Of a DNA stretch of 55,104 nt, positions 24,497-37,790 are shown piece after piece; position 1 is the stretch's first letter, and each line of letters opens with the position of its first letter. The stretch covers positions 1 through 55,104 of the forward strand of contig JAKMDW010000068.1 in the NCBI GenBank assembly GCA_022426245.1, given 5' to 3'. The translations under genes and the position numbers were made by a program. The notes beneath the pieces are model-generated. The model was not told the DNA's origin. It worked only from the letters and a program-made list of their open reading frames with translations, and made no database searches. This DNA comes from Alphaproteobacteria bacterium (GTDB lineage Bacteria; Pseudomonadota; Alphaproteobacteria; RS24).

Positions 24497-25495
24497 TTAC
24501 GGGCGCAGCAAGCGCGCGATCAAGGCGTCTAATTGTTCCAGCGTTTTATAGGCAATTCGCACATCGCCGCCCTTTTTACCCTTATCATCAAGGCGCACAC
24601 TCAGGCCGAGACGATCAGCCAATTGCTTTTCAAGCTGTCGCGTATCGGCCGATTTCTCGCTAATGATTTTGGACGCATCGCCAGCCGCTGTCGGCGTTTT
24701 GCCACTTTGCGCCGCCACCAGCCGCTCAACAGCGCGGACGCTCATGCCTTCTTTGACAATGAGCTTAACCGTTTTCTCAATCAAATCTTGTGTTTGTTTG
24801 TCAGCATCGCTCAAGCCCAAAAGGGCGCGCGCATGGCCCATCGAAATTGTGCCCGCGCTGAGGGCGTTTTTCACCGCTTGCGGGGCGCCGGTCAGGCGCA
24901 GCAAATTAGCAATATGGCTCCGGCTCTTGCCAATGGTCTCGGCAAGCTCCGCTTGTGTATAGGCAAACTCATCTATAAGCCTTTGATATCCCTCAGCTTC
25001 TTCAATTGGATTGAGGTCGGCACGCTGCACATTCTCAACCAAGCCGATTTCCAATGCGGTGACATCATTGACCGGCTGCACAATCACCGGCACCTGATGC
25101 AAGCGCGCCATTTGCGCGGCGCGCCAGCGTCGTTCACCCGCAATAATTTCATAGCCGGCATCCACGGGTCGCACCAAAAGTGGTTGCAACACGCCTGATT
25201 TCTCAACCGACGCCGCCAAGGCCGCCAATTCGTCTTTATCAAAGGTCTTGCGGGGCTGAAAAGCGCCCGGCTTCAGCTCATCAATACCGACATAGATAAG
25301 GCCATTACCAGCCGCTTTTCCGGCATTATCAGAGGCTGAAGCGGCTTTGTCGGCGTCGCCCTGTGGGGCAGGGCTGCTACCAACCGGTGGGTTAACCGCC
25401 ACTTTCGGCGCAGCGGCATCGCCGATCAGCGCCGACAGGCCGCGGCCCAAACCACGCTGGGCTTTTCGGGGGGCGGGTTTTTTTGCGTCACTCAT
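24497..25495 (-). CDS. parB: chromosome-partitioning protein ParB
   Basis: This 332-residue protein starts with Lys-rich residues and GLGRGLSALIGDA, then a low-complexity linker. The CTPase/ParB domain has IIAGERRWRAAQMARLHQVPVIV and ENVQRADLNPIEEAEGYQRLI, and a central helix-turn-helix (YTQAELAETIGKSRSHIANLLRLTGAP). A C-terminal dimerisation domain ends LDALIARLLRP. ParB loads on parS sites (two at 27020 and 29113), slides as a CTP clamp and recruits SMC and ParA. It is translated from the same leftward run as parA, 30 nt after its stop. Confidence 0.97.
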   Translation of the reverse strand: MSDAKKPAPRKAQRGLGRGLSALIGDAAAPKVAVNPPVGSSPAPQGDADKAASASDNAGKAAGNGLIYVGIDELKPGAFQPRKTFDKDELAALAASVEKSGVLQPLLVRPVDAGYEIIAGERRWRAAQMARLHQVPVIVQPVNDVTALEIGLVENVQRADLNPIEEAEGYQRLIDEFAYTQAELAETIGKSRSHIANLLRLTGAPQAVKNALSAGTISMGHARALLGLSDADKQTQDLIEKTVKLIVKEGMSVRAVERLVAAQSGKTPTAAGDASKIISEKSADTRQLEKQLADRLGLSVRLDDKGKKGGDVRIAYKTLEQLDALIARLLRP

Positions 25496-25525: not shown

Positions 25526-26383
25526 TCACGCCGCTTGCCGGGCGCGTTCGCGCCGAACAAGTTCACCGGCCAATTGCATATAGGCCAAAGAACCACTGCA
25601 TTTATGGTCATATAAGAGCGCCGGCTTGCCGAAACTGGGCGCCTCTGAAACCCTCACATTTCTCGGAATAACAGTGTCATAAACCAGCGTCTCAAAATGC
25701 GTGCGCACATCGGCATCGACTTGCGATGACAAATTATTGCGCGCATCATACATGGTCAGCACAATGCCCTGAATATCCAAAGACGGGTTGAGGCTGCCCT
25801 TAACCTGCTCGATGGTGCTTAAAAGTTGGCTCAACCCCTCCAGCGCAAAAAACTCGCATTGCAAGGGCACCAATACCGATTGCGCGGCGGTCATGGCGTT
25901 CAATGTCAGCATGTTGAGCGATGGCGGACAATCGATAAAAATATAGGAAAAGCGGCTGGCCGTACTATCGGCAGTGTAAGCGGCCAGGGCATCGGCCAAG
26001 CGGTGGATGCGCCGCTCATTATCCGACAACTCAACCTCGACGCCGAGCAAATCCATGCTCGCCGGCACCAGATGGAAGCCCGGCACGGCGGTTTCACAAA
26101 TCGCCTCGGCCAATGTCGCATCGCCCAACAGCACATCAAAGCTGGTCACCGTCCGGTCGGCGCGGTCAATGCCCAAGCCGGTTGACGCATTGCCCTGCGG
26201 GTCTAAGTCGATCAACAGAACCGGCTCGCCAATCGCGGCCAAAGCGGTTCCGAGATTGATCGCCGTGGTGGTTTTGCCGACACCGCCTTTTTGATTGGCC
26301 AGACACATAACGCGCGGCGACGTTTGCGCAATAGCGCCCCTGGGGGATGGATCAAATGGCGACAAACGAGCCTCCTCACACAT
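25526..26383 (-). CDS. parA: chromosome-partitioning ATPase ParA (Soj)
   Basis: This protein of about 285 residues has a deviant Walker A KGGVGKTT in MCLANQKGGVGKTTTAINLGTAL, the ParA/MinD family ATPase that moves origins by binding DNA and ParB. Later motifs are LLIDLDPQGNAST and IFIDCPPSLNMLT. The start is not settled: TTG at 26399-26401, ATG at 26381-26383 (used here), or a TTG at 26363-26365 that has the best ribosome site (GAGGAG, 6-nt gap). All three lie upstream of the ATPase core. It sits 39 nt after the rsmG stop. Confidence 0.96.
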   Translation of the reverse strand: MCEEARLSPFDPSPRGAIAQTSPRVMCLANQKGGVGKTTTAINLGTALAAIGEPVLLIDLDPQGNASTGLGIDRADRTVTSFDVLLGDATLAEAICETAVPGFHLVPASMDLLGVEVELSDNERRIHRLADALAAYTADSTASRFSYIFIDCPPSLNMLTLNAMTAAQSVLVPLQCEFFALEGLSQLLSTIEQVKGSLNPSLDIQGIVLTMYDARNNLSSQVDADVRTHFETLVYDTVIPRNVRVSEAPSFGKPALLYDHKCSGSLAYMQLAGELVRRERARQAA

Positions 26384-26422
26384 TTCCTCAAACAGACGCA
26401 AACTTGCGCTGCAAGCCGCTTT

Positions 26423-27079
26423 TTAGCCAGTGATTGGCGAAACAGCCCTAATTTCCAATATCCGCGCCGCCGGATCCGTATCACTCACCTGCGCCGTTAC
26501 ATTAAGTTTCCAATATTGTTCGCTCGCCGTCAATTCTTCCTGCCAATTGCGCCCCTTATGAACCAGCGCAACTGTGGATGAATTGCAAAAAGGCGCCAAT
26601 AACCGCAGTAAATCGGGCAGGGGCGCCAGGGCGCGCGCGGTAATCACGTCTATTCTCGCCAATTCAGGCGGCATGGCCTCCGATACGGCTTCAATGCGGG
26701 CATGATGAACCGTTGCCGCAAGCCCGATATCAGCAATAACGGCGCGCAGAAAGCCGGCTTTCTTGCGGTCACTCTCGATAAAATGCATCCGCGCCTCAGG
26801 GGCTTTTTCAGCCAGCATAATGGCCAAAACCAACCCGGGTAGGCCGCCGCCGCTACCCAAATCAAGCCATGATGTCGCCATATCCGGCGCATGACGCAAA
26901 ATTTGGGCCGAGTCCGCGGCGTGCCGCTGCCAGAAATGCGCCAGCGTATTGGGCCCCACCAGATTGACCGATTGCTGCCACTTGCCCAATAGCGCCTGAT
27001 AAGCCATCAGTCTGGCAAGTGTTTCACGTGAAACATGATAGGTTGCGGCGAATGTTTCCGGCGTCATTTCTTCGGGCAT
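26423..27079 (-). CDS. rsmG: 16S rRNA m7G527 methyltransferase
   Basis: This protein of about 218 residues uses S-adenosylmethionine to methylate G527 of 16S rRNA. It shows WLDLGSGGGLPGLVLAIML (SAM motif I), FIESDRKKAGFLR and ARALAPLPDLLRL. Near the N-terminus, YHVSRETLARL is encoded by DNA containing a perfect parS site (27020-27035). The start is ambiguous: ATGCCCGAAGAAATGA is present twice, at 27079 and 27108 on the leftward strand, in different frames. Only the 27079 copy reads directly into rsmG. An open extension to 27169 overlaps mnmG and is unlikely. Confidence 0.95.
   Translation of the reverse strand: MPEEMTPETFAATYHVSRETLARLMAYQALLGKWQQSVNLVGPNTLAHFWQRHAADSAQILRHAPDMATSWLDLGSGGGLPGLVLAIMLAEKAPEARMHFIESDRKKAGFLRAVIADIGLAATVHHARIEAVSEAMPPELARIDVITARALAPLPDLLRLLAPFCNSSTVALVHKGRNWQEELTASEQYWKLNVTAQVSDTDPAARILEIRAVSPITG
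27020..27035. promoter_or_regulatory. parS site within rsmG
   Basis: TGTTTCACGTGAAACA is a perfect 16-bp palindrome identical to the universal parS consensus bound by ParB. It lies inside the rsmG coding region, where it encodes part of HVSRET, so both protein and DNA site are under selection. Confidence 0.97.
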
Positions 27080-29112: not shown

Positions 29113-29128
29113 TGTTTCACGTGAAACA
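29113..29128. promoter_or_regulatory. parS site between mnmE and mnmG
   Basis: A second perfect TGTTTCACGTGAAACA palindrome lies 80 nt upstream of the mnmG ATG, 52 nt past the mnmE stop. With the site in rsmG it makes a parS pair 2.1 kb apart and 7-10 kb from the candidate origin. I saw no third perfect copy in the window. Confidence 0.97.
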
Positions 29129-35462: not shown

Positions 35463-36500
35463 TCATCCGGCTGTGCGTATCAGCTCAATCAGCTGCGTTA
35501 CATTTTCAGGCGGCGTCTGCGGCACAATACCATGACCAAGGTTGAAAATATGCGAGGTATTTTTGGTCTTCGCCAGAATTTCCCGCACAGCATCGTCTAA
35601 CGCTGCGCCTCCGGCGGCCAGGATTTGCGGGTCGAGATTACCTTGCAACACCATCTCATCCCCGACCTCGCGGCGCACGGCGTCAATATCAGCGCTTGTA
35701 TCAAGCCCCAGCGCATCGCATCCGACAGCCGCACAATAATCCCCCATATGGGTTTTGGCGGCGCGCGGAAAAGCGATGATCGGCGCATCAACACCACGCG
35801 CGCGCAAGCCCCGAATGATTGCAGCCACCGGTGCAACGCACCATCGCTCAAAATCAGCACCCTCAAGCGAAGCCGCCCAGCTTTCAAAAAGCTGCAACAC
35901 TTCCGCACCGGCTTTTACCTGCGCGGCCAAATAATCCACCGTTGCCGCGACCAATATATCGATAATCGATTGAAACGCCGCCGCATCCCGCGCGGCCAAC
36001 TCGCGAGCCGGTGCTTGGTCTGGCGTGCCGCGTCCGGCCACCATATAGCTGGCCACGGTCCATGGCGCGCCGGCAAAGCCGATTAATGTCGTCGCTTTTG
36101 GCAGGCTTTTGGAAAGCCGATCAACCGTCTCACATATCGGTGCCAAACGAGCCGCCGCATTGTCTAGCGACAGGCTGTCGGCATTTTCTATCGGCGTTAG
36201 CCGCGGGCCTTCGCCGGTCTCAAACCATAGCTTTTGGCCCAGCGCCTGCGGAATTAACAAAATATCGGCAAATAAAATGGATGCGTCAAAACCATAGCGC
36301 CGTATCGGTTGTAGGGTAACCTCTTCGGCCAAAGACGGGGCATAGCATAAATCGAGAAACCCGCCCGCCTGTTCGCGCGTCGCGCGATATTCGGGCAAAT
36401 ATCGTCCGGCTTGTCGCATCAACCATATTGGCGGAGTCGCATCATGATGACCTTGCAAAACCCGCAAAAGTTTCTTTTCGGATGGCAGCTTCAAACTCAT
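35463..36500 (-). CDS. hemE: uroporphyrinogen decarboxylase
   Basis: This 345-residue cytosolic TIM-barrel enzyme removes four acetate carboxyls of uroporphyrinogen III to make coproporphyrinogen. It shows PPIWLMRQAGRYLPEYRATRE (residues 22-42) with the substrate-binding arginines and FADILLIPQALG with the catalytic Asp. AAGGAG sits 5 nt before the ATG. It is the first gene to the left of the candidate origin, a placement seen in Caulobacter and Rickettsia. Confidence 0.97.
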   Translation of the reverse strand: MSLKLPSEKKLLRVLQGHHDATPPIWLMRQAGRYLPEYRATREQAGGFLDLCYAPSLAEEVTLQPIRRYGFDASILFADILLIPQALGQKLWFETGEGPRLTPIENADSLSLDNAAARLAPICETVDRLSKSLPKATTLIGFAGAPWTVASYMVAGRGTPDQAPARELAARDAAAFQSIIDILVAATVDYLAAQVKAGAEVLQLFESWAASLEGADFERWCVAPVAAIIRGLRARGVDAPIIAFPRAAKTHMGDYCAAVGCDALGLDTSADIDAVRREVGDEMVLQGNLDPQILAAGGAALDDAVREILAKTKNTSHIFNLGHGIVPQTPPENVTQLIELIRTAG

Positions 36501-36652
36501 ATCTCTCCTTAACCGTTTTTCTTATTTAAATAAATAAAGGATGTTGTTGTTGTTGTGTCCGCCGTTTTCTGTTGATTACTGAGCTTAGCTATTTCTATCC
36601 CCAGATGAGACTAAGCCAAAAGTGTTCTGTGAAGATCGGGGAAAAATAAAAC

Positions 36653-36661
36653 TTATCCCCC
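36653..36661 (+). promoter_or_regulatory. DnaA-box-like site TTATCCCCC
   Basis: It has two mismatches to TTATCCACA. It is one of several TTATCC-led nonamers confined to the gap between hemE and PPSR. Confidence 0.5.
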
Positions 36662-36753
36662 AGCGATCCCCTAGCTATTTCAAACCAGTGTCAAACTGGC
36701 TTCTGGCAGTCCGACGCAGAGGACTGGGTTAACATTGCTAGGCTGTCTAATTG

Positions 36754-36771
36754 TGGGGATAAGGGGGATAA
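36754..36771 (-). promoter_or_regulatory. two abutting DnaA-box-like sites, leftward
   Basis: On the leftward strand TTATCCCCC (36771-36763) is followed with no gap by TTATCCCCA (36762-36754). They have two and one mismatches to TTATCCACA. Same orientation, back to back. Confidence 0.65.
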
Positions 36772-36796
36772 AAACGCGATGAATAAAACCCGATGA

Positions 36797-36880
36797 TTTG
36801 TCCCCGTTCTCCCAAATAGGCGAAAGTGATTTAATAAACCCTGTATAAACGGCGGCGACAAAAAGCATAGCGGGGACAAA
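36797..36880. repeat. 10-bp inverted repeat in the origin gap
   Basis: TTTGTCCCCG (36797-36806) and its exact reverse complement CGGGGACAAA (36871-36880) are 64 nt apart. A near copy, GCGGCGACAAAA at about 36850, makes a direct pair with the second arm. It may be a binding site for an initiation regulator. Confidence 0.7.
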
Positions 36881-36907
36881 ATTTCTTGGATTCGCGCGCA
36901 GCGCAAC

Positions 36908-36925
36908 TTATCCTCACTATTCACA
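36908..36925 (+). promoter_or_regulatory. two abutting DnaA-box-like sites, rightward
   Basis: TTATCCTCA (36908-36916) and CTATTCACA (36917-36925) abut in the same orientation, each one mismatch from a TTATNCACA-type box. They lie 32-49 nt before the PPSR ATG, mirror-wise to the pair at 36754-36771. Confidence 0.6.
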
Positions 36926-36956
36926 TAATTCACCCACTTCCCGAAGCGGAGCCCTG

Positions 36957-37790
36957 ATGGCCGATACCCAATTTCACCTACACTTAATCTCCGACAGCAC
37001 CGGCGAGACCGTGCAGGCAGTCGCGCGAGCAGTGTGCGCGCAATTTGTCGATGCCGCGCCGCATGAACATATTTACGGCCTGGTGCGCGGGTCGAAAGCC
37101 TTGGCGCGCGCGCTGGATGAGTTAAGGGCCAATCCGGGGCCGGTGATGTATTCCATCCTTGATGATGGGTTGCGCAGCGAGCTGCATGCTGCCTGCGATA
37201 AGATCGGCGTGCCGTGCCTATCGCTTTTGCAGCCCTTCGTAAACTCCCTGGCCCCTTATTTAAAGGTAGAGATCGCCAATAAGCCGGGAAGCCAGCACGC
37301 GCTGGACACGGATTATTTCCACCGCATCAATGCGCTTAACTACACAATCCAACATGATGACGGGCAGAGCCAGGGCGATTTGAACGAGGCGGATATTGTT
37401 TTGACCGGGGTCAGCCGCACCTCAAAAACCCCGACCTGTATTTATCTCGCCAATAAAGGCATTAAGGCTGCCAATGTGCCGCTTGTGCCGGGCATGGACC
37501 CGCCGCGTGAGTTGCTGGAAGCGCACCACCCGCTCATTGTCGGCCTCACCAACAGCCCCGAACGCCTGCAGGCGATACGCCGCAATCGGCTGTTGACGCT
37601 CAATGAGGATAATGAGACGGAATATATCGACCCGGAGCTTATTCGCGGCGAAGTGGCTGAAGCGCGGCGCTTATTCACCCGGCAAAAATGGCCGGTCATT
37701 GATGTAACGCGGCGCTCGGTTGAAGAGATCGCCAGTGCCATTTTGAACCTGTATCAAGAACGTGAAAAAACCCATCATGCAACTGACTAA
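36957..37790 (+). CDS. pyruvate,phosphate dikinase / PEP synthase regulatory protein (DUF299)
   Basis: This 277-residue bifunctional kinase/pyrophosphorylase family protein switches PPDK or PEP synthase on and off by ADP-dependent phosphorylation and Pi-dependent removal. Visible motifs are LHLISDSTGETVQAVARA at the N-terminus and the P-loop-like TGVSRTSKTPTCIYLANKG (about 146-164), followed by VPLVPGMDPP. CGGAG lies 5 nt before ATG. It is the first gene right of the origin gap, equivalent to RP001 in Rickettsia. It ends within the start region of maf. Confidence 0.95.
   Translation: MADTQFHLHLISDSTGETVQAVARAVCAQFVDAAPHEHIYGLVRGSKALARALDELRANPGPVMYSILDDGLRSELHAACDKIGVPCLSLLQPFVNSLAPYLKVEIANKPGSQHALDTDYFHRINALNYTIQHDDGQSQGDLNEADIVLTGVSRTSKTPTCIYLANKGIKAANVPLVPGMDPPRELLEAHHPLIVGLTNSPERLQAIRRNRLLTLNEDNETEYIDPELIRGEVAEARRLFTRQKWPVIDVTRRSVEEIASAILNLYQEREKTHHATD

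What the first reader, a model, noticed from the sequence alone, without database searches (positions are those of the whole stretch)
36501..36956. Probable chromosomal origin of replication (oriC)
Seen: a 456-nt noncoding gap between divergent hemE and the PPSR/DUF299 gene, an AT-rich tract on one side, TTATCC-led DnaA-like boxes, and inverted repeats. Genes on both sides run outward. Known: Caulobacter and Rickettsia origins lie between hemE and the RP001/DUF299 homologue. Inference: replication starts here.
Basis: partly seen in the sequence, partly recalled or inferred. Interest (0 to 1): 0.72.

Follow-up and report, generated by a model that had tools for sequence, protein, structure and literature searches.

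The report
Replication origin of a PS1-clade alphaproteobacterium
This 456-base gap is almost certainly where a small marine bacterium of the PS1 clade starts copying its chromosome; the place is ordinary for its class, but the short repeat that should help open the DNA breaks the published 'middle adenine' rule.

Summary
The gap 36501-36956, between divergent hemE and PPSR (DUF299/COG1806), is the chromosomal origin of a PS1-clade alphaproteobacterium. The window's genome is a 133-contig MAG, so skew was tested in a near-complete congener, G026. There GC skew changes sign at hemE/PPSR (local cumulative minimum 9 bp from PPSR), and the opposite change lies about 895 kb away (half the genome is 902 kb). 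The densest DnaA-box cluster and the only parS pair in the 760 kb sampled also sit there. In the window's genome both exact parS sites lie 7-10 kb from the gap.

In the window's clade the array is (TTG)4, so the middle adenine required of DnaA-trios is absent. Of 148 alphaproteobacterial hemE-PPSR gaps, 97 have such an array (about 4 in shuffles), with T as common as A in the middle. DnaA there mostly has Tyr at the B. subtilis Asn187 position, which contacts that adenine. Known origin type, variant unwinding module; how DnaA reads it is inferred.

The parts
36501..36956 (.). oriC: noncoding gap between divergent hemE and PPSR
   Evidence: skew sign change at the same gap in congener G026
36517..36537 (.). 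AT-rich tract, probable first melting region
   Evidence: 80% A+T in the bin 36511-36540; 36521-36550 is 96-99% conserved in 7 species of the clade
36538..36555 (+). DnaA-trio-like array AGG ATG TTG TTG TTG TTG; sister genera have TAG/TTG mixtures
36556..36569 (.). 14-nt spacer holding a GC cluster (CCGCCG 36559-36564)
36570..36578 (-). array-proximal DnaA box TAATCAACA (TAATCCACA in sister genera; 2 mismatches to TTATCCACA here)
36595..36603 (+). DnaA box CTATCCCCA
36653..36661 (+). DnaA box TTATCCCCC
36754..36771 (-). tandem DnaA boxes TTATCCCCC + TTATCCCCA, 9-bp period, pointing to hemE
   Evidence: 82% conserved at 36751-36770 within a poorly conserved centre
36798..36806 (+). weak DnaA-like site TTGTCCCCG
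   Evidence: arm of inverted repeat I5
36828..36849 (.). conserved GATTTAATAAACCCTGTATAAA, role unknown
36871..36889 (.). conserved CGGGGACAAAATTTCTTGG (weak DnaA-like site plus unknown motif)
   Evidence: 97% conserved at 36871-36890; the extended motif has one copy per genome in the window's genome and 10 congeners
36908..36934 (+). three tandem DnaA-like 9-mers TTATCCTCA / CTATTCACA / TAATTCACC, pointing to PPSR
   Evidence: 91-94% conserved at 36901-36930
35463..36500 (-). hemE, uroporphyrinogen decarboxylase
   Evidence: Pfam PF01208, E 9e-109
36957..37790 (+). PPSR / DUF299 (Kinase-PPPase, COG1806)
   Evidence: Pfam PF03618, E 1e-89
27020..27035 (.). parS TGTTTCACGTGAAACA, inside rsmG
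   Evidence: only two sites in the 1.8-Mb assembly, both on this contig
29113..29128 (.). parS TGTTTCACGTGAAACA, inside mnmG
25526..26401 (-). parA
   Evidence: AAA_31, CbiA
24497..25495 (-). parB
   Evidence: ParB_N, HTH_ParB, ParB_C

Best explanation
The gap is the single chromosomal oriC. DnaA binds the boxes in the gap: a cluster of TTATCC-type sites with 9-bp-spaced tandem arrays pointing outward in the middle and at the PPSR end. From the box at 36570-36578 DnaA is thought to extend as an oligomer past the GC cluster onto one strand of the adjacent trinucleotide array (36538-36555), stretching it so that the AT tract (36517-36537) melts next to hemE and the helicase can load. ParB loaded at two parS sites 7-10 kb away would then help separate the new origins. 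Shown by computation: position, skew (in a congener), box cluster, parS, conservation of the module. Inferred: DnaA binding, the melting site and the way DnaA reads the array. Because the middle base of the box-proximal trios is T here, and DnaA has Tyr238 at the B. subtilis Asn187 position, DnaA probably does not use the adenine-amine contact described in B. subtilis.
For: Skew: in G026 all 20-kb stretches sampled on contig C3 left of hemE/PPSR have negative GC skew and all those to the right positive; 1-kb bins turn at 776-777 kb and the cumulative minimum over 40 kb is at 775,646, 9 bp from PPSR. The reverse change is at C2 600-660 kb, about 895 kb away against a half-genome of 902 kb. The window's own cumulative minimum is at 37,587. 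Box cluster: 12 boxes within 540 bp at the G026 gap against at most 5 elsewhere in 760 kb. parS only beside the gap in both genomes. hemE-PPSR arrangement in 24 PS1 loci, 104 of 106 further loci and 34 of 40 more. Module: 97 of 148 gaps carry array plus box, shuffles mean 3.75, opposite orientation 7. Caulobacter and Rickettsia origins lie between the same genes (PMC1914354).
Against: Whole-genome skew could not be computed for the window's own 133-contig assembly; in G026 it was sampled, not continuous, and the order of two contigs is assumed. The reading of the array is not shown: the published minimum of three consecutive NAN trios beside a box (PMC8287927) is not met, and thymine in that position impairs B. 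subtilis origins (PMC10721633). The proximal box has 2 mismatches to consensus. No IHF or CtrA consensus site was found in the gap.
Confidence: 0.82

Rival explanations
1. The origin is here, but opening follows the E. coli way: the TTG array is a DUE whose TTGT motifs are recruited back to DnaA bound on distant boxes, not a BUS in which DnaA extends directly from the neighbouring box.
For: TTGTTGTTGTTGTTGTG holds TTGT several times, the motif bound in E. coli ssDUE (PMC10316083); several boxes are far from the array; the proximal box is weak in this clade.
Against: No IHF consensus site in the gap within 1 mismatch. The box, 14-nt spacer and array are held in fixed spacing across genera, as in a BUS, and sister genera carry TAG units in the same frame.
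Confidence: 0.3
2. The conserved hemE-side module is the promoter and leader of hemE, and its trinucleotide run has no part in replication.
For: It lies about 20-80 nt upstream of hemE, where a promoter is expected; A+T-rich tracts suit promoters. Origin and promoter functions can overlap.
Against: The period of 3, the GC cluster and the box recur beside hemE over the whole class although the surrounding sequence and the distance to hemE differ.
Confidence: 0.12
3. The gap is only a divergent promoter region with chance DnaA boxes, and replication starts elsewhere, for example near dnaA or the parABS locus.
For: Whole-genome skew of the window's own assembly is not available; in G026 dnaA (C3:701.6 kb) is 75 kb away, so a dnaA-linked origin had to be tested.
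Against: Skew stays negative through 690-766 kb and turns only at hemE/PPSR; box density at the gap is unmatched in the window and in 760 kb of G026.
Confidence: 0.03

Closest known systems
Caulobacter crescentus origin (Cori) and Rickettsia prowazekii origin, hemE-COG1806/RP001 type
   Same: Same flanking genes in the same orientation, similar length, DnaA boxes, AT-rich tract (PMC1914354)
   Different: No TTAA-N7-TTAA CtrA site (up to 1 mismatch) and no IHF consensus in the gap although a CtrA-like protein is encoded; Cori has five CtrA sites and one IHF site (PMC1914354)
Basal unwinding system (BUS) with DnaA-trios, Bacillus subtilis oriC
   Same: Order DnaA box, GC-rich spacer, trinucleotide array, AT-rich tract; strand and orientation; spacer 14 nt
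   Different: Middle base of the first four units is T, not A; one box rather than a clear tandem pair; DnaA has Tyr at the Asn187 position and Lys at the Arg202 position
Escherichia coli oriC DUE (TTGT/TTATT ssDUE motifs)
   Same: TTGT repeated in one strand of the putative unwinding region; hydrophobic residue at the H-motif position of DnaA
   Different: Array is strictly periodic by 3 and sits 14 nt from a box; no detectable IHF site
Thermotoga maritima DUE with three TAG repeats (eTrio)
   Same: Three or more tandem trinucleotides of T-N-G form beside AT-rich sequence
   Different: TTG in place of TAG; different DnaA-box sequence

Membership tests
Bacterial chromosomal origin (oriC) | Position at the skew sign change | tested here: met
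   In congener G026; not possible genome-wide for the window's own assembly
Bacterial chromosomal origin (oriC) | Cluster of DnaA boxes in noncoding DNA | tested here: met
Bacterial chromosomal origin (oriC) | Highest copy number in growing cells; supports replication | not testable with these tools
   No reads, no experiments
hemE-COG1806 type alphaproteobacterial origin | Between divergent hemE and the COG1806 gene | tested here: met
   class-wide
hemE-COG1806 type alphaproteobacterial origin | CtrA sites TTAA-N7-TTAA (Caulobacter; not present in every published member) | tested here: not met
   None with up to 1 mismatch in the gap; no exact site in 24 PS1 gaps
hemE-COG1806 type alphaproteobacterial origin | IHF site WATCAANNNNTTR (consensus from memory) | tested here: not met
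   None with up to 1 mismatch; a diverged site is possible
BUS / DnaA-trio | DnaA box (at most 2 mismatches) within 16 bp of the array | tested here: met
   TAATCAACA, 14 bp away
BUS / DnaA-trio | At least three consecutive NAN trios (conserved middle adenine) | tested here: not met
   Box-proximal units are TTG TTG TTG TTG; rule from PMC8287927
BUS / DnaA-trio | DnaA-dependent strand separation that needs box and array | not testable with these tools
   Biochemistry needed

The most novel reading that the evidence does not exclude
Alphaproteobacterial origins use a changed single-strand code: DnaA with an aromatic residue at the Asn187 position reads T-(A/T/G)-G trinucleotides, so the middle adenine thought to define DnaA-trios is dispensable, and PS1-clade origins with pure TTG arrays are the extreme case.
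Probability: 0.4. Interest if true: 0.6.

Novelty: new variant of a known kind. Interest (0 to 1): 0.4.

Why it matters
The location gives a little-studied marine lineage a firm origin, useful for growth-rate estimates from read coverage. The array matters more: the proposed widely conserved opening system of bacterial origins rests on a middle adenine, and the published genome-wide scan demanded NAN units, so arrays with T or G in the middle would have been missed by design. A whole class that keeps the layout but not the adenine, with a different residue in the DnaA pocket, makes the recognition rule directly testable with short DNA scaffolds.

Tried and rejected
I first looked for a DnaA-pocket change specific to the TTG clade: none of the five contact residues differs between TTG and TAG clades within the family. 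The clade-specific changes in domain III are R222, V250 and T288, and V at the 250 position is also what B. subtilis has, so co-change inside the family was dropped. The Asn-to-Tyr difference is family- and class-wide instead. CtrA control as in Caulobacter was considered and not supported by sites. The 80-aa ORF at 36691-36933 inside the gap is taken as spurious: much of the DNA under it is poorly conserved and it carries the boxes. No RNA family matched the gap. One literature query failed on its syntax. The order-level search repeated the family-level one.

Full report
OBSERVATION. The gap is exactly 36501-36956: hemE starts at 36500 on the minus strand and PPSR (Kinase-PPPase, DUF299, COG1806) at 36957 on the plus strand. 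It holds nine DnaA-like sites within one mismatch of five common box forms. The contig average is 0.46 per 456 nt, and windows over this gap rank first of 480. The stretch 36511-36540 is 80% A+T. Most good inverted repeats are oppositely oriented boxes.

WHERE THE WINDOW LIES. The window is a whole contig of a 1.8-Mb, 133-contig assembly, 90% complete. Its PPSR is closest to PS1-clade and 'Rhodobiaceae' MAGs, and IMCC14465, named in the literature as a PS1-clade isolate, is a more distant match in the same table. The contig also carries parB, parA, rsmG, mnmG and mnmE.

ORIGIN TEST. The window's own genome is too fragmented, so I sampled 760 kb of G026, a congener with contigs of 1,041,791 and 759,859 bases. 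GC skew is negative in all sampled stretches before hemE/PPSR on C3 and positive in all after it. In 1-kb bins the turn is at 776-777 kb, and TA skew broadly follows. The cumulative minimum of the 40 kb around it is at 775,646, next to PPSR at 775,655. The reverse turn is at C2 600-660 kb, about 895 kb away if C3 is followed by C2, against a half-genome of 902 kb. The window's own cumulative minimum is at 37,587, 0.6 kb from the gap. dnaA of G026 is 75 kb away at 701.6 kb and shows no turn.

SUPPORTING MARKS. parS (TGTTTCACGTGAAACA) has two copies in the window's genome, at 27020 and 29113 of this contig, and two in sampled G026, at 783,372 and 785,441, again 7-9 kb from the gap. The DnaA-box cluster of the G026 gap (12 in 540 bp) exceeds everything else sampled (at most 5). 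The hemE-PPSR arrangement is kept in all 24 PS1 loci long enough to show both genes, in 104 of 106 further loci and in 34 of 40 more. Published work places the Caulobacter and Rickettsia origins between the same genes (PMC1914354).

ANATOMY FROM RELATIVES. In seven species of the window's clade two ends are strongly conserved and the middle is not. On the hemE side: AT tract, then AGGATGTTGTTGTTGTTG, a GC-rich spacer of 14 nt, and a minus-strand box TAATCAACA. On the PPSR side: CGGGGACAAAATTTCTTGG, then the tandem 9-mers TTATCCTCA, CTATTCACA, TAATTCACC. A tandem box pair in the middle (36754-36771) is also kept. The order on the hemE side matches the basal unwinding system of B. subtilis, where DnaA-trios (5'-TAG-3' type) follow a GC-rich spacer next to the boxes (PMC8287927, PMC10316083).

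THE UNUSUAL POINT. Sister genera have mixed arrays such as TAG TAG TTG TTG TAG or TAG TTG TAG TAG. The window has TTG four times, so the middle adenine is missing from every box-proximal unit; one clade member (L010) keeps a single distal TAG. The published scan required at least three NAN units (PMC8287927). In B. subtilis thymine or guanine in the middle lowers strand separation and initiation, while cytosine works, because an amino group contacts Asn187 (PMC10721633). I therefore surveyed 148 alphaproteobacterial gaps. Arrays of at least three NNG units with a box within 24 nt occur in 97, against a mean of 3.75 in shuffles and 7 in the opposite orientation. T-first units were 119 TAG, 114 TTG, 54 TGG and 5 TCG. 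In the group drawn mostly one or a few per family the counts are 46 TAG, 44 TTG and 32 TGG, and seven of these loci hold TTG three times in a row. The detector fixes T and G but leaves the middle free. It was written after seeing examples, and the rows are not independent, so the counts are descriptive. Local base composition could explain A and T being about equal; that would still mean no strict adenine rule.

DnaA. The genome's DnaA (506 aa) aligns to 8btg with Tyr238 at Asn187, Ile241 at Ile190, Leu244 at Ile193, Lys253 at Arg202 and Glu279 at Glu228 (positions counted from that alignment). Tyr is present throughout the PS1 family and in 25 of 29 class members read; the others have Phe or His. 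So the residue that contacts the adenine is replaced by an aromatic one in the class where the adenine rule is loose. This is correlation across one class, not proof, and the authors of the B. subtilis work themselves note that DnaA homologues might read a range of sequences.

MECHANISM AND LIMITS. Most likely DnaA extends from the box at 36570-36578 onto the array and opens the AT tract. An E. coli-like recruitment of TTGT motifs is the main rival. Neither DnaA binding nor melting was tested. No CtrA site (up to one mismatch) or IHF consensus was found in the gap, although a CtrA-like regulator is encoded (L278; identified by reading its sequence, not by a family search).

VERDICT. A correct call of an ordinary type of origin, plus a variant unwinding module that deserves a bench test. 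I found no paper describing T-middle arrays in the library searched, which lacks most subscription journals.

Noticed in passing
window 36871-36889: CGGGGACAAAATTTCTTGG, followed at fixed distance by ACTTATCC, is nearly invariant in the genus; the extended motif has one copy per genome in the window's genome and 10 congeners. Role unknown (promoter of PPSR, bending site or DnaA site).
   Followed up: partly
window 36570-36578: The array-proximal DnaA box changed from TAATCCACA to TAATCAACA in the same clade whose array became (nearly) pure TTG; the two changes may be linked.
   Followed up: no
window 27020-27035 and 29113-29128: Both parS sites lie inside coding sequence (rsmG and mnmG).
   Followed up: no
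L278 (G000 contig C40): A CtrA-like response regulator (contains [22 protein letters not shown]) is encoded although the origin has no recognisable CtrA site.
   Followed up: partly
L039 (G026 C3:480001-500000): A 20-kb stretch at 37.8% G+C in a genome of about 53%; looks like a genomic island. L031 and L053 are also low (47-48%).
   Followed up: no
L197: Another alphaproteobacterial family has TTGTTGTTGTT followed by CTGTTGAAAA, resembling the PS1 combination of TTG array and TGTTGA box.
   Followed up: no
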